Part shown: positions 6,706 to 43,544 of the stretch, piece by piece
Numbering within the stretch: position 1 is the first letter of the stretch
Layout of the letters: each line of letters opens with the position of its first letter
From: Tatlockia sp.
GTDB taxonomy: Bacteria > Pseudomonadota > Gammaproteobacteria > Legionellales > Legionellaceae
Reading direction: 5' to 3'
Assembly: GCA_013697955.1 (NCBI GenBank)
Contig: JACCVV010000089.1
Span: 62,001-126,000, forward strand
Length of the DNA stretch: 64,000 bases
The notes under the pieces: model-generated
Told to the model about the DNA's origin: nothing
The model's database searches: none
The model's input: only the letters and a program-made list of their open reading frames with translations
Program-made: the position numbers and the translations under genes

Positions 6706-7551
6706 CTATTTTTTAAAATTAAATTTGTTCAAAGTAAGCAATTCTGTGTTGGTATCCTCATCCTCACTTTCTGGAGACCAAAAGCGAAGATAGCCCTTAA
6801 CTTGTCGGCTTACCTGATCTACGGTAGGCAAAGGCTTTTTTCGATATCCACTCTCTGAATTTATTTTGATTGAATTTTCCTCATCGGAAAGTTCGTCGTC
6901 AGGTTTTCCAAATCCCAACATTTGTTTAAGTTGAATTCGTGAACGATGCGAGATATTTCGCCAAATAAAATTGGCTGCTAACATGCCAACCCCAATCACT
7001 GTAAAGGTTGCAAGTGCAACTGGGGCAGTTCCAGGGATTAGCAATGCGAATACAATAGTCATCATCATCGAAATAATTAAAACAGCATTGAACACATTAT
7101 TCATCGCAGCCTGCAGGTGATGCATTCGTTCAATGGAATCCGGCCATGACTTGAATGCCTTATAGCTATGGAAAAGAAACATTCCAAATTGCTGAGAAAA
7201 TCCAATTATCATGGAGGCCAAGAGAACCCAGGGCCCCGCTAAAAAGGTGGTATGCATAGCTGATGCGATAATACCGCCAAAAGTAGAAGTATTGTTCAGT
7301 AAAGCACTTGATAAACTGGCAAATAAAGGTAAAACCTTGTCTAAGCCATGTTGCTTGCTTTGATAAAGGTTATAGGCTTGCAAAAGGACTAAGACCAATA
7401 AGGTAAGTGAGAAAATCGTTTTTAAAACCAGACCCCAGGGAGATGTGTTGAAGGAACGCAAACGTAAAGCGTTTGACCTGACAAATAGTAGAACCGATTG
7501 AAAGGTATCTTTAACATTTAATAAAAATGACCTAAAACGCACAACGAACAT
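6706..7551 (-). CDS. Unrecognised multi-spanning membrane protein, first gene of the PilT-like operon
   Basis: A 281-residue protein with about four membrane segments: roughly 42-62, 98-125, 148-171 and 174-195. The C-terminal 85 residues are charged and soluble (acidic DDELSDEE stretch, then a basic segment). I know no family with this layout. It heads the run of four minus-strand genes that includes the PilT-like ATPase, and a 517-base gene-free spacer lies upstream, so the operon promoter is probably there. A GGTGGA element precedes the ATG. Confidence 0.68.
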   Translation of the reverse strand: MFVVRFRSFLLNVKDTFQSVLLFVRSNALRLRSFNTSPWGLVLKTIFSLTLLVLVLLQAYNLYQSKQHGLDKVLPLFASLSSALLNNTSTFGGIIASAMHTTFLAGPWVLLASMIIGFSQQFGMFLFHSYKAFKSWPDSIERMHHLQAAMNNVFNAVLIISMMMTIVFALLIPGTAPVALATFTVIGVGMLAANFIWRNISHRSRIQLKQMLGFGKPDDELSDEENSIKINSESGYRKKPLPTVDQVSRQVKGYLRFWSPESEDEDTNTELLTLNKFNFKK

Positions 7552-8068
7552 GTAAATCCACCCTCTTTTGGCTAACTTACTAATTATCCTCGAAAAAAGT
7601 GATGAAGCCTAGAAAGAATTTGGCCATGAAAGTAAATTTTTTAGCACAATTTGAACTAAATGGATAGATGAACTTTTAAAAAACAGCCTATTTTCAGTAA
7701 TTTGTTAGTTTAATTTAGGCCCAACAAGCTAAGTCTTAAATGTAAAACGATTAGATTAAGTTCGATTTTTATACATATCAATGTAATCTAAAAAAATTCT
7801 TTAAAAGCTATTAAGGGCGTGAAGAGCGCGGATTCGAAATTAATTTAAATTGAATGATTGACTTTAAATTGAGCCTTACACAGTCGCCTTTAGGTCAACC
7901 AAAAACAAGATTTGTTCGGTTAAAGTATTGTCTATTCGAGGTTGTTTTAGCTAGTCATAACTTGTTAGAACAAAGGGAGGTTCAAAATTTATCTGAATTC
8001 AATTCATCAAGAATTTGATAGCCTCATTTTTAAAGTGAGGCTGAATAAATATCAAGTTTTAGCTGTGT
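7552..8068. other. Gene-free spacer between the PilT-like operon and the GDSL gene
   Basis: About 517 bases of AT-rich sequence with no open frame of useful length on either strand. It should hold the promoter of the minus-strand operon at its left end and the 3' region of the GDSL gene at its right end. Apart from the hairpin at 8020-8042, I see no repeat, RNA gene or recognisable gene remnant. Confidence 0.5.
8020..8042 (-). terminator. Possible terminator of the GDSL hydrolase gene
   Basis: Seven-base inverted repeat, AGCCTCA (8020-8026) with TGAGGCT (8036-8042), about 27 bases past the stop codon of the minus-strand gene. The uridine run after the stem is weak, so the terminator call is tentative. 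Confidence 0.4.
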
Positions 8069-10591
8069 TTAGCGTCGAAAATGAGCATAAGTTATTAAGG
8101 CTTCGGCAGATTTTTCCGGCTTGACAATATCATAAGCGTTTTGAATAGCTTCAATCTTATCAAAGGGGTTCTGAAGATTATTTTTTCCATCAATCCACCC
8201 AAGGTCTACCAAAACACTACGAGTTCGTTCTCCGCCGTCTTTTAAGGCATGTCGCAAAATACGTTCCAAATTGGCTGTAGCAGGATTAATTTTAGATTTC
8301 ATAAAAAATGACCCAAAAAAGGCTGAAAAGGTTTCTTCTGTCCAACGTTCTTTATAGGCTTTAGTAAAATCAAGCATCAAACTGGCTTCATCATAACCAT
8401 ATCCCCCACTCTCTTTAATCATTGCATTCAGAATTTCAAAAGGACTATCTGCTGGGCTACTGTCATCCTTGATTAACTCGGGATATTTGCTTAAGTTTGC
8501 GGTTTTTTCTAGAGTGCACTGAGTTTGTGGTGGGTCAAATTTTAGGGGATCGATAGCTTCTATCAATTGGATATTGGCAAACTTATCAAGACCCTTTTCA
8601 AGATATCCATGCTTTCCACAAAAACCAATTGTCAGTGTATCCCCTTTAAAATAAACCAAAACATTGGTTCCTCGGCGCGCCTCAACCATTTTTTTATCTT
8701 CAGCGGTTGGGGATTTATCTCTATATTGAAGGTGAAACCCGGGGGAAGGAGGCTCAATGATATAATGGTTGCCAAGATCGTGCGGTCCCTGACATTGGGA
8801 AGCAATTAGTTTAACCGTTTCATCACAGGGTATGACTGATCCCTTGCCTTTAGTGATCCGCCTTAGGTCATTTTCAACTTCTATATTCGGATTTTGATGC
8901 AAATATTCAGTTAAATTGATTTCTTCAAAGCAGTTTTTACGATGGAAATCATCAATAATTTTAGAGATATTGGCTTCGTCCGAATTGTTTAGCTCACTTT
9001 TGCCTTTGAGTAATTCAGCTAATCCATTGATTTTTCCAATACCAATAATTTTATCTTTTCCTTTTACCTCCGAAGGAAAATAAGAAAGTTGCCAGAGCTT
9101 AAGTCCATTATCGAATCTAAGGCTATAGTGATTATCCGCCAAAATATTTTTACCGAAATTTATTTTGCAGGGTATATAGGGCTTATGAATCACCAAGGCT
9201 TTAACATCCCTAGAATCTTGATAGAAATAAATGCCATGATTCCAATGTTGGCGTTGTGACATGGTCATTAGATTGAATTGTTGCTCTGGAGTAAATTGAT
9301 TTAATTTTGGTAAAAGTTCATTAAGTATTTGCGAATGCTCAGCTGCAACATAATGATTTAAAACCTTGTCCTCCTCATAGCGATAGCAAGACCATTTTTC
9401 ACCATTTTTAACAAAGATAACTTTATTGTGGTCAAGTTCCACCTCGTTTTCAATTTGAGCTAAATCATCGCCGATCACGGTGACTACTTTGAAATCGAGG
9501 ATTGGTGTAGGGGTATCAGCAACAAAAGTGTAATCGTAAAGTTTATTATAGGCCATTTTTTTGGCAATCATTTTTTCAAGTTCATTGGCCATCTTTGAAG
9601 TAGGATGCACTTCATCCCAAAATAGATAGCCGCCGCCATGTTTTGGATTTTCCTTAAATTCGTCTGAATCTTTAAAATAATGGGTTAATTTGTCTTTATC
9701 AAAACCATATTTTTCAGGATTATCATAAACTTCATTAAACATCGAATGGATATCGTGAAAATTTAATTGCAGTTTTTTATTGTCTTTGTTTTTTACTTTC
9801 AGGTTCTCATAAGCTTCTTTTAACTTTGTATTGTAATTTTGGGTTAATTCGGTGCCTATATTTCCCCAATTATTATTTTGGAATCGAGGAGTTAAACCGA
9901 GATTGGGCAAATTAGTTAGAGAAAAGATTGAATAACCTGCATTAATTAACGCTTGGATATGCTCCATTTGAGCAGTTACAGCTTTTTTAATCACCTCATT
10001 TTTTTCTTCCTCGGAAAGCGCAGAGGGATCATTTACGGTAATAAGGTCATTAGCACCAATAAATAGGGTATTTAAGGTGTGATCTTTTTCATCCTGGTTT
10101 ACGCATTTTGCCTCTTCTTCAGCTAAAAAAAGTATTCTTTGCTTTTCAAGAGTATCGACAATTTTGCGTGTCGCGTTCCTGGCGATGTTCCAAGTAAATA
10201 CTCCAGACCAATCAGAGGCTGTAGCACCACCTTCACAATAGGTGTTAAAAGCTTCTTGACCATAGTAGCGAACATGAGCATTGTCATCTAAATTAAAGGA
10301 TTTGTGAAAAGCATCCTTTGCCTCTTCATTAGTTAAAAGAAGCTGCATGATATTTTCAGGCGTGTATCCTTGGGCTTCCAGATTTTTTATATAAGTACTT
10401 TCTGATAAAACTGCTGTCCAATGGTCCAGCCAGGTATATTGATTTGAAAAACGTCCAAAAGGAGAAGAGCCTTCCAAGCCGGAAAGTTTGGCTAAAGGAA
10501 TTATCCCGAAGAGAAGGCGTTTATACATTTTGCCGCGATCAGAGAGGCTATCCCCAGTAGAAATTACCCGATTAATAATATAAACCGACAT
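8069..10591 (-). CDS. Large GDSL lipase/acylhydrolase, possible secreted effector
   Basis: An 840-residue protein whose first 345 residues form a GDSL/SGNH hydrolase domain: block I GDSLSD at 13-18 (nucleophile Ser15), the Asn block GAND at 179-182, and the Asp/His block WDEVHPTS at about 325-332 (Asp326, His329). Such enzymes cleave ester bonds in phospholipids or other acyl esters; the PlaA/PlaC phospholipases of Legionella belong to the same superfamily. The block I Ser is only 15 residues from the start and there is no signal peptide, so general export is unlikely. Some 490 further residues have no family I recognise. A large unexported lipase with an unknown tail in Legionella suggests a type IV (Dot/Icm) substrate, by inference. 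AAGG lies six bases before the ATG. Confidence 0.82.
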   Translation of the reverse strand: MSVYIINRVISTGDSLSDRGKMYKRLLFGIIPLAKLSGLEGSSPFGRFSNQYTWLDHWTAVLSESTYIKNLEAQGYTPENIMQLLLTNEEAKDAFHKSFNLDDNAHVRYYGQEAFNTYCEGGATASDWSGVFTWNIARNATRKIVDTLEKQRILFLAEEEAKCVNQDEKDHTLNTLFIGANDLITVNDPSALSEEEKNEVIKKAVTAQMEHIQALINAGYSIFSLTNLPNLGLTPRFQNNNWGNIGTELTQNYNTKLKEAYENLKVKNKDNKKLQLNFHDIHSMFNEVYDNPEKYGFDKDKLTHYFKDSDEFKENPKHGGGYLFWDEVHPTSKMANELEKMIAKKMAYNKLYDYTFVADTPTPILDFKVVTVIGDDLAQIENEVELDHNKVIFVKNGEKWSCYRYEEDKVLNHYVAAEHSQILNELLPKLNQFTPEQQFNLMTMSQRQHWNHGIYFYQDSRDVKALVIHKPYIPCKINFGKNILADNHYSLRFDNGLKLWQLSYFPSEVKGKDKIIGIGKINGLAELLKGKSELNNSDEANISKIIDDFHRKNCFEEINLTEYLHQNPNIEVENDLRRITKGKGSVIPCDETVKLIASQCQGPHDLGNHYIIEPPSPGFHLQYRDKSPTAEDKKMVEARRGTNVLVYFKGDTLTIGFCGKHGYLEKGLDKFANIQLIEAIDPLKFDPPQTQCTLEKTANLSKYPELIKDDSSPADSPFEILNAMIKESGGYGYDEASLMLDFTKAYKERWTEETFSAFFGSFFMKSKINPATANLERILRHALKDGGERTRSVLVDLGWIDGKNNLQNPFDKIEAIQNAYDIVKPEKSAEALITYAHFRR

Positions 10592-10639
10592 GCTGAACCT
10601 TACTTAAGAACACTATATTTAAATTATAAGTGAGGATCA

Positions 10640-11251
10640 TTAAGGTAATATTAGGGCAGGTAAAATTTCTACCACTTGGGCAACCCAGAGGTTATTATCT
10701 GTTCTTATTAATGTATTTCGGCGCCCATAAATTGTTTCATTGATTTTACAAAATATCAGATTGGCAAGCATTTTGTTGCACTTGGTTGAAAAATAGCTGC
10801 GGTTTAAAGAAGCAGTTTTTATTTGATGGATTTCGAGCAACTTGCCAAAGGGTATATTGGTATTTTTGACATCATTTTTTAAATTGATTGGTAATTCCTT
10901 AAAATTCATGGTGATGAAGGCCAATTCCGCAACAGCGCTTTCTTCAGGGGAAGGGTCTATATTGGCTTTTGTTTTTGAATTATTCAAGACCATTAGAATT
11001 ATTCTTGAATAATGCTTTTTACCTTGCTTTGTATAAATCGTTTTTATAAAGGCCTTTCGCTGGTAATAATGCTCGATTCCAATGGTCATTTTTGGTTGGG
11101 TGAGTAAATAATTATAAGGAATGGGCAACTCTTTTTGACTTAAGGGTCTAAGTTTATCGAGTTTAACTATAGAATTCATTTGCTGCTCAATGTTTTGAGC
11201 AATAGCGCAATTCGATAACATCAAACAAAGGAGAATTAAGTTTTTAATCAT
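10640..11251 (-). CDS. Exported hypothetical protein
   Basis: A 203-residue protein with a clear signal peptide (MIKNLILLCLMLSNCAIAQ, cleavage likely after about residue 18), so periplasmic or secreted. The mature part is basic, with two cysteines in its last third (STKCNK and LIFCKI) that could pair. No family recognised. It lies just upstream of the GDSL gene on the same strand, 48 bases apart, and may share its transcript. Confidence 0.65.
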   Translation of the reverse strand: MIKNLILLCLMLSNCAIAQNIEQQMNSIVKLDKLRPLSQKELPIPYNYLLTQPKMTIGIEHYYQRKAFIKTIYTKQGKKHYSRIILMVLNNSKTKANIDPSPEESAVAELAFITMNFKELPINLKNDVKNTNIPFGKLLEIHQIKTASLNRSYFSTKCNKMLANLIFCKINETIYGRRNTLIRTDNNLWVAQVVEILPALILP

Positions 11252-21826: not shown

Positions 21827-23236
21827 TCATTTAATAAAATGTTGGTATAGAACGTAGGATACGCAAGCTGTTAATTTTTCAGCCATTTTCAGATCCAGGA
21901 ATTCATTAGGTCCATGTGCATTTGAATGAGGCCCTAAAACACCTGTGATCATAAATTGAGCCTGAGGAAATTGTTCACCTAACATGCCCATAAAAGGTAT
22001 GGTGCCACCTTCCCCCATGTAAATAGCAGGTTTATTGTAAAAGGTCATCGAAGCATCATTTGCAGCTTTAGCTAACCAATCAGCCAATGGAGGCGCGTCC
22101 CAGCCCCTTGCACAATCGTCAATAATGAAATCAACTTTCGCCTGATAAGGCGGGTGTTTGGTCAATGCATCATGCAGGGTCTCGGCTGCTTTTTGCGGTG
22201 AGACCAATGGAGGGATACGCATTGACAGTTTGAGTGCGGTTTTTGATCGCAGAACATTTCCAGCATTAGCTATTGAAGGCAACCCTTCAGCACCGGTTAC
22301 AGATAAAGCCGGCCGCCATGTCCGATTTAGAATTAACTCTTTTTCCACAAGAGTTACCGGCTGAACTCCGGGGAGAAAGGGTAATGAATGATAAATTTCT
22401 TTACCTAAAACCTCAGCGCAAGCTGCTGCCTGGTCTATACGTTGTTGGGGAATATCACAATATAGATCATCTAGTTGGATCTCACCGTTTTGCTCATTTT
22501 CAATTCGGCTGAGCAACTGTTTTGTTACCCTGAAACTATCGGCAACAATTCCGCTAGCGCCCCCTGAATGCACACCTTCACTGATTAGCTCAACGGATAA
22601 TTCGCCAACGATATTGCCGCGCAAAGAAGTCGTCATCCATAATTGCTCATAGTTTCCGGCACCGGAGTCCAGACAAATTACTAAAGAAGGTTCGCCAATT
22701 TTTTCTTTAAGAAGATCTATATAAAAAGGAAGGTCATAGCTGCCACTTTCTTCACAGGCCTCAATTATTAATACACAACGGGCGTGAGGCAGATTTTGCT
22801 CTTGCAAGGCTCGTATTGCTGTTAATGAGGCATAGGCTGCATAACCATCATCTGCCCCGCCTCGTCCATAAAGCCTCTCGTCTTTTATGACTGGTGTCCA
22901 GGGTCCTAAACCTTCATCCCAACCAGACATCTCTGGCTGTTTATCCAAATGCCCATAAAGAAGTACGGTCTGTTCAAAATCTCCAGGAATTTCCATAAAT
23001 AATAAAGGAGTCCGACCAGGGAGCCTCTCAATTGATAATTTCATATTTTTCGGGGCGTGTTTAGTACACCAATCAGCTACGTGCTGAACAGCCTGCTCCA
23101 TAAATCCATGTTTATCCCAGTCTTTATCAAAATGGGGCGACTTATTAGGTATTTTTATATAAGCAGATAAACTTGGTACTATTGTTTGTCTCCACTCATC
23201 CTTTATATAGTCAAGCAACTTTTGGGGATTCAACAT
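21827..23236 (-). CDS. M20 family metallopeptidase
   Basis: A 469-residue zinc peptidase of the M20/M25/M40 group, which act as di- or exopeptidases or deacylases. Metal ligands are visible in LLYGHLDKQPE (His), GRGGADDGYAA (Asp), EACEESGS (catalytic Glu pair), CLDSG (Asp) and a C-terminal GPHSNAHGPNE (His). The family's dimerisation insert lies between about 210 and 340. No signal peptide. The ATG lies 26 bases inside the end of the upstream murG-like gene with AAGGAG at good spacing, so both share an operon. The substrate cannot be told from sequence. Confidence 0.88.
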   Translation of the reverse strand: MLNPQKLLDYIKDEWRQTIVPSLSAYIKIPNKSPHFDKDWDKHGFMEQAVQHVADWCTKHAPKNMKLSIERLPGRTPLLFMEIPGDFEQTVLLYGHLDKQPEMSGWDEGLGPWTPVIKDERLYGRGGADDGYAAYASLTAIRALQEQNLPHARCVLIIEACEESGSYDLPFYIDLLKEKIGEPSLVICLDSGAGNYEQLWMTTSLRGNIVGELSVELISEGVHSGGASGIVADSFRVTKQLLSRIENEQNGEIQLDDLYCDIPQQRIDQAAACAEVLGKEIYHSLPFLPGVQPVTLVEKELILNRTWRPALSVTGAEGLPSIANAGNVLRSKTALKLSMRIPPLVSPQKAAETLHDALTKHPPYQAKVDFIIDDCARGWDAPPLADWLAKAANDASMTFYNKPAIYMGEGGTIPFMGMLGEQFPQAQFMITGVLGPHSNAHGPNEFLDLKMAEKLTACVSYVLYQHFIK

Positions 23237-37409: not shown

Positions 37410-38144
37410 TTAGGCACCAGCTTTTTTAACAGAAATTAAATGGATTTTAAAAACTAAAGTCTCATTCGGTCCAATCGGTCCACCAACAGAACGCGGGCCA
37501 TAGGCAAGATCAGATGGAACATAAACTTCCCAAGTAGATCCGGAGGGCATTATTTGTAAAGCTTCAGTCCAGCCAGGAATGACCTGTGACACTTTAAAAG
37601 TAGCAGGCTTACCGGTTTTTTCAGTAGTATCGAAAACCTGACCGTCAATTAAAGTACCTGTGTAATCTACAGTTACTGTGTCATCTTTAGAAGGAGTTGC
37701 GCCATCCCCTTTTTGCAGAATTTTATATTGCAAACCGCTTGGTAAGGTAACCACACCTTCTTTTGATTTATTCTGGTTTAAGAAAGTTTCGCCTTTTGTC
37801 TTATTTTCTTCTGCTTTTTTATTAAAATCAGCTGTTCTTTTTGTCATAAGATCCTTTTGGAAGGTATTTAACACTTCTCTCATTTGCTGCTCAGTCAACT
37901 GAAATTTACTACCACTCATGCCATCTTGTAAGCCTTGGGCCATTGCAGCCGGACTAATATCGATACCCTGTTTTTTGAAATTTTTACCTAAATCAGCGCC
38001 GATACTGTAAGACAACTTTTCCATTTCAGTACTTAATGATGTTGCAGATGGTGCAGTGCTAGCTGCGTCAGTTGCAGCACTCGCAGCTATAGTACATGAC
38101 ATTGCCAAACCCATAACAGCTGCAGCGACCAGTCTCATCTTCAT
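37410..38144 (-). CDS. mip: Macrophage infectivity potentiator Mip, FKBP-type peptidyl-prolyl isomerase
   Basis: The ATG at 38144 ([17 protein letters not shown]) has AGGGGA six bases upstream and begins the signal peptide; an upstream frame extension is ignored. The 244-residue product has an N-terminal dimerisation domain ([20 protein letters not shown]), a long connecting helix (about 80-125) and a C-terminal FKBP domain with [39 protein letters not shown] and [20 protein letters not shown]. This follows Legionella Mip throughout. It is a periplasmic/surface homodimer that aids infection of macrophages and amoebae. The Ala/Ser-rich linker after the signal peptide is longer than I recall for L. 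pneumophila. Confidence 0.96.
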
Positions 38145-38326
38145 AAACAATCCCCTTTCTTCTTTCGTCAAAATAATAAAAATAATCAAAACTATATTGT
38201 AAAAATGCCCAACCATTCTGCCTAAATTAAAATGAAATTACCAGAGTGAATTTTTAAGAAAGTTTATCCAATATGTTTGATAAATTTCTTAAAAAGCAAA
38301 GAACGAGTGCATTTAAATAATGCATC

Positions 38327-41300
38327 ATGTTAGAATCGCGACCACTTTTCTATATTGATGTAAAAATGCATTTAAAAATCGAAACCAATGACAAAGCCTC
38401 AGCCTCAAAAATTTTTTTTTGGGACGGCCTATTTGATCCCAATGATTTAGCTCAACATTATGAGCCGATCGTTGAGAAGCTTCTTGAAGGGAACTACCAA
38501 GGGCTGGATCTTGAAAAGCTGGATGGATATAACGTTTACTCAGTTCGTGTGAATTCTAGTGATAGGCTGCTGTTTACCACAATTACCGTAAACCACATGC
38601 CCTATTTGCTGCTTCTCGATGAAGTATTGAATCACGATTATGCAAAATCCCGTTTTTTAAAACGCGGTGTTTTAAAGAATTACTTAGATTTAAATGGCGA
38701 AATTTTTGCCGAAGAAATATCTCAAGCTCATTTTAAAACGACTGATAAACCACCAGCACCCCCCCACTGAAAATAGAAGGCAGAATAAGTCCTTAAATTA
38801 TTCTCGCATCGATTTTTTTAATCAAAAATTTATAGAGCTGGATCCTCTACAATTGGGTGTAGCAACTAAGACAAAACTCCCCTTAATAATTAGTGGCGCA
38901 GCAGGATCTGGTAAATCCTGTGTCGGTTTATCCATTTTAGCTAATTACGTCGAATCCTTAACTGAAGATAAATATCCTCTGCTTTATGTGACTGAATCAG
39001 AACAACTTTCCACTCACATGCAACTTTCTTGGCAGTCGCTTCCGATTGCTCAAGATCTAAATTTCAACGATGTACAATTCAAAAGCTATCAACAACTAAT
39101 TATCGATATAGAGCCTGCAGCAGCAATTATGGCCTTTGTGGATAAAAACCATTGTTTAGATTGGCTAGCAGGTTTATCAAACTTCATCAAACCTTAGCAA
39201 AAACGATTAAAGGGCAATCTTTAAGTGAAGATTTTTATTCAGATAGCGATAAAATTTACCAGGAATTTCGAATAATATCAGGTTGCCCATCTCTAGAAGA
39301 CTATAAAAAGTTAGGGCAAAAAAATACGCTTTTTGCAAATGAGAAAGAACAGGAATGGCTTTATAACGCCTACACTGTTTATTTAAAAAAGCTTGAAAAT
39401 TCGAAAAGCATCCACACACCCTTTCATCAGCTTACGAAAAAAAATTACTTTAAACGGATCGTTGTCGATGAAGCCCAGGACTTTTCACATTTACAATTAG
39501 CAGCTTTAGCTAATTTAGCAACCGATAAACAAATTTGCTATTGCGAAGATAATCGGCAAAGCCTTTCTGACAATAAATCAAAAATTCCTTTTCTCGAAAA
39601 ATGTTTTAATCTCTGGGGAGCTGGTTCGAATCAAGTTTTTCTGCCTTCCTCATATCGTTGCCCAGTTGCAAGCGTAATTATGGCCAATGCCGTTACAGAA
39701 CTTAAAGCCATGGCAACCGATTATGGTCAGCAAGAAATCAAATTTAGAGAAAATCAAATAAAGGGCGCAGTAAAGTGGATAGAAAAACTTGACAATTTTC
39801 AACTCTCTGAGCTCCAACACCTCGCCTTATCGCCTGATTTTGCCATAGTCACTTCTAAAGAAAATAAGGAAGATGCTAAACAATTGTTCAAAACTCTATT
39901 GGTTTTTACACCGGAGGAAATCAAAGGTTTGGAATACAAAAATATATTGGCTTATCGATTATTGGATAATCCGCTATTTAAAAAGGCTGATAATATAATT
40001 GGGGAAAAGTCCTCTGGATTTATAAAAAAATCAGACAATCGAGCCAAAAGAGGTCAAAGCAGAGAACATCTTGGTCTTCCTTTCAATGCCTTTTATACCG
40101 CCTGCACCAGGACAACAGAAACTTTATATGTATTCCAGGAAAATCATCATTATTTGAAAAATATCATCGAGCATCTTAAAAAGGCTATTATAAAAGCACC
40201 AGAAATCTCTATGGAACCGGCTCTAGACTCTGAAACAATAAAGGAAAAGTGGTTTAATGAGGTCAAGCTTCAACTTGGGGAAGGTAATGTTGAAAAGGCA
40301 AAAGAAATTTACATGGAAATTTTGGGAAAAACAGTTGAGCAATTTCAGGAGTTAAAAAATTTATTTCTTGAACCTGTTAAACCGACGCTTAAAGAAAATA
40401 TTGGCGCTATCAGATCTTTCGACGAACAGATTAATCATACGAATAAGTGTTTGGAAAATATTAATGAAATTCCAGGAGATTCAACTGAATATAAAAATCC
40501 CTATGAGGATAAAGCGACCAAACAAGTTGACCCTTCTTTGCCCAAGAAAAAAATTACTAAAAAATATAAACAAAAACACCTTGACCAAATTCTTAAACAA
40601 CCCCCGAGCAAAAGATTTTTTATTTTATATACCTATAAAGGATAATTCACAGAATGAACCTTGTTTATTCACAGCACTTTTTAATGAAGATTCCAGGATT
40701 GAAGCCCTTTATCACTGTATGTGCATGCCCAAATTCCAAAAACTTTTTATAGAGATCCCTTCATTCGCTCTCTGCCATCCAAGAGAAAAGATTTTTTTAA
40801 GTCTGAGCGGAAATCGATTTTTTCAACAAGAATTACAATCGAGGTTGGAGCTTGCAAATGAAAGAGCTAACACGTCGCCCTTGTATTGGCTATCAATTTC
40901 TGCAGAAGGAAGAGAAATATTTGCTAATCTTCTTAAAAAAAACCCACTGTTAGCCACATCTGTCGATTCAGCAGCACTCACTCGGGAACGATCCACAAAG
41001 TATAAAGGGAACGGTGAAACGCCCTTGGATTTGCTTTTATATCAAGAACAAATTGGGGAAGGTAATTCAATCCTGGAACTTTTATCAAAATACAATCCAG
41101 AATTAACCAAACTAATTAACCTTAATATAAAGCGCTTGCAACAAATAAAAAATGAACAGGAAAAATTGCCGCCCAAAAAAGAGTTATTTTCAGAGGAAAT
41201 CATCACCAATATGTGCATTGAAAAGGGGCTGGTCGAGGTATTTAAAGGTAAAGATCTACCCGATTATTTAGCCAAAAACTTTGAATTAAAAGACAACTCC

Positions 41301-41414
41301 GGGGTGGAATTATTAACAACACCCTCATCACTTGGGTTGTTTTCAGAAAATAGAAACACTGTTATTACCTCTACGAAAACAGAAACCCGCAAAAAAATAG
41401 ATTCCTACACATAA
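38327..41414 (+). pseudogene. SF1 (UvrD-like) helicase with RelE-like N-terminus and ankyrin-like tail, frameshifted
   Basis: One long gene in four pieces. Frame changes: C7 at 38759-38765 (one C too many), A5 at 39144-39148 (one A too few), and C5 at 40601-40605 or T6 at 40616-40621 (one base too many). Undoing them gives 1029 codons with no other stop. N-terminus (about 1-125): LDGYNVYSVRVNSSDRLLFTTI and LLDEVLNHDYAKSRF, reminiscent of RelE/ParE-type folds. Helicase motifs: Walker A SGAAGSGKS, DEAQD, CEDNRQSL, SSYRCP, TPEEIKGLEYKNIL, YTACTRTTETLYV. C-terminal part: a helical region with NGETPLDLLLYQ, an ankyrin-like hairpin. Every motif is intact, so decay is recent, the changes are reading errors, or expression is phase-variable. 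Confidence 0.78.
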
Positions 41415-42167
41415 TAATAATTAGGGATACACTAAGAATTGGGGTAATAAAGTTAGATTTTAAAAAATTAAACATTTATTTATACCCCAAAATTAACTGA
41501 AGTTCTTTTACCTTCCAGATGATAGATTAAACGTTTTAAAAACGGCATTTTTCTCGGCTGTCCCCAGTCGCTTTTCCGCAAATTATAATTTCTATATATG
41601 TAAAATAATCTAACCTATTTAAGAGCAGGCTCCCTATATCGTAAATTAAGGGAAATCGGATACAACACTAATGCTTCAGGATTTTCATAGGTGCAAATTA
41701 ACCGACCTTGATTAGATCAATTGTAAAAATTCTAAATTGGGCGGAATTGTTTGATTGCGATAAAAGCCGTACTTACCTTTTGATGTACAAGCCATACCTG
41801 GGTGAGTTACTGAGTACTTTTATCTTGAATGCTTTTAAATAGAACGATTTAAAATAAAAAATTAGTTTATGAAATTTTATTCTTATTATCAATTTATAAA
41901 ATGGACATCCCAGGGTTCACTTGGGCAAATTCATTCCAATAATACAGGTTTTCTGATATGAAAAAGAAAGATAGATATTCAATTTTCTTAAGGCGCATCC
42001 GTTCCCTGGAACGTTTTACTCCCGAGCATTGCCAGGAAATTAAGTAAAGTTGAAAATGTCAATTTATGAAAATATCTAGTTAAATACTGATTTAGATCCT
42101 AATTGGGTTGTTTGTCCTTTAGTTTCCTTCTAAAATTGTTATTAATTAAGTCATTTCGGGTTTATCA
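41415..42167. other. Gene-poor stretch before sdaA
   Basis: About 750 bases of AT-rich sequence without a convincing gene. The only short frame with a coding look is 29 codons at 41958-42047 (starts MKKKDRYS), too short to judge. No inverted terminal repeats, tRNA or intact mobile element seen. The sdaA promoter should be at the right end. Confidence 0.45.
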
Positions 42168-43544
42168 ATGAGCATTTCTGTATTCGATTTATTTTCTGTT
42201 GGAATAGGCCCCTCAAGTTCTCACACCGTAGGGCCCATGCTCTCTGCCAATGCCTTCTTAATTTTACTCGAATCTAATCAACTTTTAGAGCGAACTGAGC
42301 GTATTAAAATTGAACTTTATGGCTCTCTCGCTTTGACTGGTAAAGGCCATGGTACCGATAAAGCGATATTGAACGGCTTAGAGGGTAAATCGCCCGAGAC
42401 GGTAAATCCCGAATTAATGGTTCCACGGATGCAGGAAATTCTTGAAACAAAAACACTTTATCTTGCCGGTAGAAAAAATATTTTATTTAACGAATCAGAC
42501 GACTTCCTCTTTTATCAAAAAGAGCTCTTACCCAAACATACCAATGGCATGCGTTTTACAGCCTATGATGTGATTCAAAATCTTTTATCAACTCAAGTTT
42601 ATTATTCAATAGGCGGGGGGTTCATTTGTACCGAAGAAGAATTTGAAAAACCTACAATGAGTGTTATGCCTCCGCCCTATCCTTTCACTACCGCGCGTCA
42701 ATTGTTGAGATTATGCAAGGAAAACAACTTAAGCATTGCTCAATTAATGATGGCTAATGAATTAAACTGGCGAGATGAAGATACGATACAAAAAGGAATT
42801 CTTGAAATAGCAAAAATAATGAATGATTGCATCGACAATGGTTGCAAACATCCTGGCATTTTACCAGGCGGATTGAATCTAAAACGGCGAGCTCCCGATT
42901 TGTATCGTAAATTAAATGCACATAAAGGCATACCCAGTATTTTTGAGCAATCCGATATTATGAATCGTCTTAATCTCTATGCTATGGCAGTTAATGAGGA
43001 AAATGCTGCTGGCGGTCGAGTTGTCACCGCACCAACCAATGGCGCCGCTGGAATCATTCCCGCAGTATTTAGATATTGTCAGGAAGCCCACGATCGCTTA
43101 AGCAAGGACGATATCTATACTTATTTTCTAACTTCTGCAGCTATTGGTATTTTATACAAGGAAGGCGCTTCTATTTCCGGGGCTGAAGTGGGTTGTCAGG
43201 GAGAAGTGGGTGTTGCCTCCTCCATGGCTGCAGCAGGATTAACTGCAGTTCTAGGCGGCACAATCGAACAAATCGAAAATGCTGCTGAAATAGCTATGGA
43301 ACATCATCTTGGTATGACCTGTGACCCCGTTATGGGACTTGTGCAAATTCCTTGCATTGAAAGAAATGCAATGGGTGCAGTAAAGGCAGTTAATGCCTCT
43401 CGTATGGCCTTAATTGGTGATGGCGAACATAAAATTTCTTTAGATAAGGTTATTAAAACCATGAAGAAAACTGGTGAGGATATGCAAAGCATTTATAAAG
43501 AAACCTCACTTGGAGGCCTGGCCGTTAATCATCCTGAATGTTAG
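42168..43544 (+). CDS. sdaA: L-serine ammonia-lyase (iron-sulfur type)
   Basis: A 458-residue single-chain L-serine dehydratase that converts serine to pyruvate and ammonia. The N-terminal beta-domain opens [20 protein letters not shown], the signature of the bacterial Fe-S enzymes. The C-terminal alpha-domain has [39 protein letters not shown] and [20 protein letters not shown]; these supply the cluster-binding cysteines. Serine is a preferred carbon source of Legionella, so the enzyme is likely central in catabolism. The gene stands alone. Confidence 0.95.

What the first reader, a model, noticed from the sequence alone, without database searches (positions are those of the whole stretch)
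38327..41414. A 1029-codon helicase gene broken three times by single-base homopolymer changes
Seen: four frames join into one of exactly 1029 codons if one C is removed at 38759-38765, one A added at 39144-39148, and one C or T removed at 40601-40621. All helicase motifs lie in open segments and remain intact. No other long gene in the window has a frameshift, so random sequencing error is not an easy explanation. Options: very recent pseudogene, phase variation by slipped-strand mispairing, or local assembly error.
Basis: partly seen in the sequence, partly recalled or inferred. Interest (0 to 1): 0.72.

Follow-up and report, generated by a model that had tools for sequence, protein, structure and literature searches.

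The report
Recently broken Legionella accessory helicase gene
A gene for a large DNA/RNA-unwinding protein, inserted beside the mip gene in one Legionella genome only, is split into four reading-frame pieces and looks like a freshly dead gene, which is ordinary for such an expendable family.

Summary
Four overlapping open segments (38327-41414) match, in order, one intact 1067-aa relative in another Legionella genome. Of 49 other window ORFs, 31 could be compared with relatives and none has a frame change. The gene belongs to a multicopy Legionellaceae family: RelE-fold-like N-terminus, UvrD-type superfamily-1 helicase core, repeat-rich (ankyrin-like) C-terminus. It lies in a 3.8-kb insert in the mip-sdaA spacer that none of 21 congeneric genomes shares (by spacing, 19 are empty; 2 hold unrelated ORFs). 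The genome's other core-bearing copy is also interrupted, by an in-frame stop; 32 core-spanning copies in 16 other genomes are open, besides one truncated core, some remnants and contig-cut copies. The pieces keep family-invariant residues within the range of intact copies, though above the median deviation, so the break looks recent. No C/G tract lies at the sites in 15 intact relatives, but two sites tend to carry A/T runs. Best reading: a recently inactivated, horizontally gained accessory gene. A local assembly fault is the main rival; only raw reads can exclude it.

The parts
37410..38150 (-). Left neighbour: FKBP_N + FKBP_C protein, the Mip of Legionella (name recalled)
   Evidence: Pfam FKBP_N 100.4 bits and FKBP_C 94.3 bits; 80-89% identical in six relatives
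38253..42097 (.). Insert between mip and sdaA, about 3.8 kb, at this site only in this genome among 22 of the genus
   Evidence: DNA similarity to G018 stops at 38252 and resumes at 42098, where G018 has about 130 bp; spacing in other genomes
38327..38770 (+). Segment 1: RelE-fold-like N-terminal part
   Evidence: 73% identical to residues 1-133 of the intact relative; model mean pLDDT 70.9, best PDB matches RelE/YoeB/HigB toxins
38694..39197 (+). Segment 2: start of the helicase core with motif I (Walker A)
   Evidence: 72% identical to residues 133-269 of the intact relative
39152..40645 (+). Segment 3: rest of the helicase core (motif II DEAQD and later motifs)
   Evidence: 58% identical to residues 270-759; UvrD-helicase 18.4 bits, below the cutoff on its own
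40368..41414 (+). Segment 4: repeat-type C-terminal part (its first stretch is out of frame)
   Evidence: 51% identical to residues 740-1060; no Pfam match
41415..42097 (.). Non-coding tail of the insert, 30.7% G+C
   Evidence: matches only this genome's own loci among the DNA fetched up to that call; G+C
42168..43544 (+). Right neighbour: L-serine dehydratase
   Evidence: SDH_alpha 303.2 bits, SDH_beta 199.8 bits; found in all 22 genomes

Best explanation
A recently inactivated (pseudo)gene of an expendable, horizontally moving helicase family. Step 1 (shown by synteny): a ~3.8-kb piece carrying one family member entered the mip-sdaA spacer in this lineage. Step 2 (shown in the assembly): its frame was then lost at three places, so no open segment holds both motif I and motif II and no working motor can be made. 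Step 3 (inferred): selection on the family had lapsed in this lineage, since its other core-bearing copy carries an in-frame stop. The intact protein (inferred from relatives) would be an ATP-driven superfamily-1 nucleic-acid motor with a RelE-fold-like N-terminus and a repeat-type C-terminus; its biological role is untested.
For: Pieces match one intact relative in order. The insert is at this site in none of 21 other genomes of the genus. Three breaks in one gene and none in the compared rest: P about 0.003 under an even rate. Divergence from the relative is coding-like (31, 21 and 50% differences at codon positions 1, 2 and 3 over 1049 codons), and 49 of 52 residues invariant in 15 intact copies are kept. 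The second core copy in this genome (L078:6481-8001 and 8089-10116) is interrupted by one TGA, while relatives of it in G018 and G016 are open. In other genomes of the genus 32 core-spanning copies, in 16 genomes, are open (31 rows that span model positions 170-640, and G019:C175). Close relatives decay elsewhere: G016 holds a truncated copy, G013 an eroded one.
Against: Only one genome of this species is held and no raw reads, so a local assembly or sequencing fault is not excluded. Frame changes near short runs are also the usual sequencing error, and this gene is run-rich. 18 of 49 other window ORFs could not be compared. The two interrupted copies among 34 open or interrupted core copies fall in one genome with a chance of about 0.04 (my arithmetic, leaving out contig-cut, truncated and remnant copies), which is not strong. 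Deviations at invariant residues (3 of 52) are above the median of intact copies (0) though within their range (0-9), so the date of the break is loose. There is no erosion beyond the three frame changes in this copy.
Confidence: 0.77

Rival explanations
1. Local assembly or sequencing fault: the gene is whole in the organism and the draft contig carries errors at runs.
For: Draft of 90 contigs; frame changes near short runs are typical errors; the gene has 14.9 runs of 5 or more per kb against 8.7 in other genes.
Against: No frame change in the 31 other window ORFs that could be compared, although the 49 other ORFs together hold 473 runs of 5 or more bases; the other family copy in the genome is broken by an in-frame stop, not a run error; relatives in other genomes are truncated or eroded too.
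Confidence: 0.14
2. Phase variation by slipped-strand mispairing: the gene is switched on and off by changes in run length.
For: One C/G run of 7, otherwise absent from 54 kb of window genes. In intact relatives, A/T runs of 7-8 lie within 36 nt of the ~270 site in 5 of 15 (three of them close kin) and of the ~750 site in 3 of 15, against 224 of 3000 (7.5%) random windows with a longest run of 7 or more. A relative in G106 is split within an 8-nt tandem repeat.
Against: At the ~130 site no relative has a run over 6, and the longest C/G run at any of the three sites is 2-4 in all 15. Runs at the other two sites differ in base and length and are absent from most relatives. Three separate sites would have to switch together.
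Confidence: 0.04
3. Split or programmed expression: the frame changes at linkers separate a RelE-like part from a helicase part that are still made as pieces or by recoding.
For: Two of the three breaks lie within about 7 residues of breaks in other genera: linker ~130-137 (window, G063) and loop ~270-279 (window, G075, G103); chance about 0.004 under uniform positions, chosen after the fact.
Against: 38 copies examined read through both places in one frame; the relatives' sites share no slippery motif by eye; in the window the second border parts motif I from motif II, so the pieces would not be working modules; there is a third break as well. The ~270 loop is run-prone in relatives, so mutability alone may explain it.
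Confidence: 0.04

Closest known systems
UvrD/PcrA-type superfamily-1 helicases (Pfam PF00580)
   Same: Core motifs; the intact relative scores 30.1 bits against a cutoff of 23; family profile matches PcrA, UvrD and HelD chains
   Different: Has a RelE-like N-terminus and a repeat C-terminus; in the window the core is cut in two
GajB of the Gabija defence system (PADLOC)
   Same: UvrD-like core; E 4.9e-8 for the intact relative
   Different: Only the core matches (residues 156-447); a GajA partner was not looked for; other domains differ
RelE/YoeB/HigB toxins
   Different: Fused to a helicase in the family; catalytic residues and activity not tested; no Foldseek match below E 0.001
Schlafen group 3 helicases (PF09848)
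   Same: The intact relative scores 28.7 bits against a cutoff of 24
   Different: The Schlafen core domain is not among the Pfam matches; the match is to the helicase domain only

Membership tests
Pseudogene | Frame interrupted relative to intact homologues | tested here: met
   Three frame changes against an intact 1067-aa relative
Pseudogene | Interruption present in the organism, not only in the assembly | not testable with these tools
   No raw reads or sister strains are held
Pseudogene | Visible decay beyond the break | tested here: inconclusive
   3 of 52 family-invariant residues deviate; intact copies deviate at 0-9 (twelve of 15 at 0-2, the others at 4, 5 and 9)
UvrD-type SF1 helicase | PF00580 above the curated cutoff | tested here: met
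   Met by the intact relative (30.1 bits, cutoff 23); the window's segments 2 and 3 apart score 14.0 and 18.4, below it
UvrD-type SF1 helicase | Motifs I and II on one polypeptide | tested here: not met
   Motif I is in segment 2, motif II in segment 3
RelE superfamily | RelE fold | tested here: inconclusive
RelE superfamily | Ribonuclease activity and catalytic residues | not tested
   No residue comparison or assay was made
Phase-variable gene | Long repeat tract kept at the switch site in relatives | tested here: not met
   No C/G tract over 4 at any site in 15 intact relatives; A/T runs of 7-8 in 0, 5 and 3 of 15 at the three sites
Phase-variable gene | Mixed run lengths in the population | not testable with these tools
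   No reads
Secreted (Dot/Icm) effector | Translocation into host cells | not testable with these tools
   Only ankyrin-like repeats in the family profile hint at it; no claim is made

The most novel reading that the evidence does not exclude
Members of the Legionellaceae RelE-helicase family break repeatedly at the same two linkers because separation of the RelE-like part from the motor is tolerated or used, so the split copies are a regulated or intermediate form rather than plain debris.
Probability: 0.05. Interest if true: 0.6.

Novelty: new member of a known kind. Interest (0 to 1): 0.25.

Why it matters
As a single case it is an ordinary dead accessory gene. It gives a clear gain-then-break example at a chromosomal spot that holds other extra ORFs in two other genomes. 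It also points to a multicopy Legionellaceae family that joins a RelE-fold-like part, a superfamily-1 helicase and ankyrin-like repeats; among the titles listed by my paper searches (lists of 5 to 15 titles each) none is about it. Asking why a species has both its copies broken is testable with more genomes.

Tried and rejected
A genome-contig scan with segment 3 alone gave no relative. The second scan, with the 15-row alignment, gave 14 loci: three titled Legionella, one Legionellaceae, one Proteobacteria MAG with a long match, and nine with short distant matches.

The G015 copy looked like a further split copy, but its frame change spans a run of N, so it was dropped from the breaks. The two split G075 copies are 99.7% identical over 1990 bp and were counted as one event. 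Alignment A1 uses 15 of the 21 relatives in L075 and L089-L108; six were left out because their first ATG lies late or the match is weak (L089, L095, L105, L106, L107, L108), and L091/L092 are near-duplicates over the core. L165-L167, with only the N-terminal part (two at contig ends), were not used as breaks. Loci for one search were chosen partly because they looked broken, so no rate is taken from it. In the core count, left out are copies cut by a contig end (G006:C3, C12, C25; G009:C12), a truncated core at a contig end (G016:C233) and remnants (G001:C8, G003 at 1462035, G013:C4).

The other jackknife, without G017, gave 6 of 56 deviating residues for the window's pieces, more than 14 of the 15 intact copies by count; I use the test with all 15 (3 of 52) because the nearest kin belongs in it as it does for the other rows, and tell both.

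Paper searches for the family and for Legionella phase variation were seen as listings with abstract starts only; no paper was opened and nothing here rests on one.

Full report
Where it is. The window is G000:C10:62001-126000 of a 3.33-Mb, 90-contig draft. The left neighbour of the finding is an FKBP protein that I recall as the Legionella Mip, and the right neighbour is L-serine dehydratase. A scan of named genomes with the family alignment returned a Legionella brunensis contig of 127,872 bases, the same length as contig C5 of G001, a genome of the window's own genus. So the genus is Legionella.

What is broken. Four overlapping open segments on the + strand (38327-38770, 38694-39197, 39152-40645, 40368-41414) match, one after another, an intact 1067-aa protein in G017 (L075:6985-10188) at 73, 72, 58 and 51% identity. 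A separate profile search puts the first two borders at residues 129/130 and 269/270 of that protein; the third lies near 740-760. The Walker A motif is in segment 2 and DEAQD in segment 3, so no segment can be a working helicase.

Is it more than chance or general bad sequence? Reference ORFs of six relatives placed on this contig cover 52.8 kb; 110 of 116 placed ORFs lie in one frame. Of the 6 flagged, five are trivial (three of them one stop at the end of 21827-23236, one upstream of a start, one antisense) and one is this gene. By window ORF, 31 of 49 others were comparable and 18 were not. Three events all in this gene has P about 0.003 under an even rate. The gene is richer in runs of 5 or more bases than the others (14.9 against 8.7 per kb) and holds a C/G run of 7, a length not seen in 54 kb of other window genes. 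This favours run-linked mutation and run-linked sequencing error alike.

Where it came from. In 18 of the 19 other congeneric genomes that have both outer neighbours on one contig, the distance from the MFS gene to the serine dehydratase gene is 1.0-1.3 kb; it is 2.5 kb in G015 and 4.9 kb here. In the last two genomes, G016 and G019, mip and the dehydratase are about 330 bp and 2.2 kb apart. G015 and G019 hold ORFs of 353 and 681 aa there, with no match to the helicase. Against the nearest relative, G018, similarity stops at 38252 and resumes at 42098. The gene is thus a lineage-specific gain at a spot that takes up different genes. Empty sites were aligned directly in five genomes (G005, G013, G014, G017, G018) and inferred from spacing in the rest.

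State of the family. 31 rows span model positions 170-640 in one frame without a stop, and a further copy, G019:C175, is open over the core by my own profile: 32 open copies in 16 other genomes. The rows that do not span were looked at too: contig-cut copies (G006:C3, C12, C25; G009:C12), a truncated core at a contig end (G016:C233), and remnants (G001:C8, G003 at 1462035, G013:C4). This genome has two core-bearing copies, and both are interrupted with both halves present: the window's by three frame changes, the other (L078:6481-8001 and 8089-10116) by one in-frame TGA, while its relatives in G018 and G016 are open. The chance that two interrupted copies among 34 share a genome is about 0.04 (my arithmetic). 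Close relatives of the window's copy decay elsewhere: G016:C233 (80% identical to G017 over 128 residues) and G013:C4.

How old is the break? Over 1049 codons compared with G017 the differences are 31, 21 and 50% at codon positions 1, 2 and 3. The pieces deviate at 3 of 52 residues that are invariant in 15 intact copies. Each intact copy tested against the other 14 deviates at 0-9 (median 0; G017 at 4 of 56, L090 at 9 of 61). Without G017 the window's count is 6 of 56, above all intact copies but one. Most of the divergence therefore arose under constraint and the break looks recent, but some relaxation is not excluded.

Phase variation and recoding. In 15 intact relatives the longest C/G run near each of the three sites is 2-4. 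A/T runs of 7-8 lie near the ~270 site in 5 of 15 (three are close kin) and near ~750 in 3 of 15, against 7.5% of random windows; none lies near ~130. So two of the sites are run-prone but no tract is conserved. Two of the three window breaks lie within about 7 residues of breaks in other genera (G063; G075 and G103), with a chance of about 0.004 for uniform positions, chosen after the fact and with few events. The relatives' sites share no motif by eye and 38 copies read through them. I take this as a lead: variable linkers may be mutable or tolerant, and a regulated split is unlikely.

Verdict. A recently inactivated accessory helicase gene. The assembly-fault rival stays open until reads are seen.

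Noticed in passing
L160:1458-5167 and 7249-10940 (G075): Two neighbouring family copies share the same frame change at residues ~273-279; they are 99.7% identical over 1990 bp while their C-terminal parts differ, which suggests gene conversion that spread or kept the split.
   Followed up: partly
L161:2260-2380 (G106): A family copy changes frame within an 8-nt tandem repeat, a possible copy-number switch.
   Followed up: no
38253-42097; L087:6430-7491 (G015); L141:673-2718 (G019): The mip-dehydratase spacer holds a different extra gene in three Legionella genomes and, by spacing, none in 19, so it looks like an insertion hot spot.
   Followed up: partly
L078:6481-8001 and 8089-10116 (G000:C68): Second family copy in the window's own genome, interrupted by one in-frame TGA within the helicase core.
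   Followed up: yes
L138 (G013) and L135 (G016): Eroded and truncated relatives of the window's gene; the G013 copy keeps short N- and C-terminal fragments in more than one frame.
   Followed up: partly
L176:1353-13911 (G089): Three family copies, open over the RelE-like part and the core, lie within 13 kb, a local cluster.
   Followed up: no
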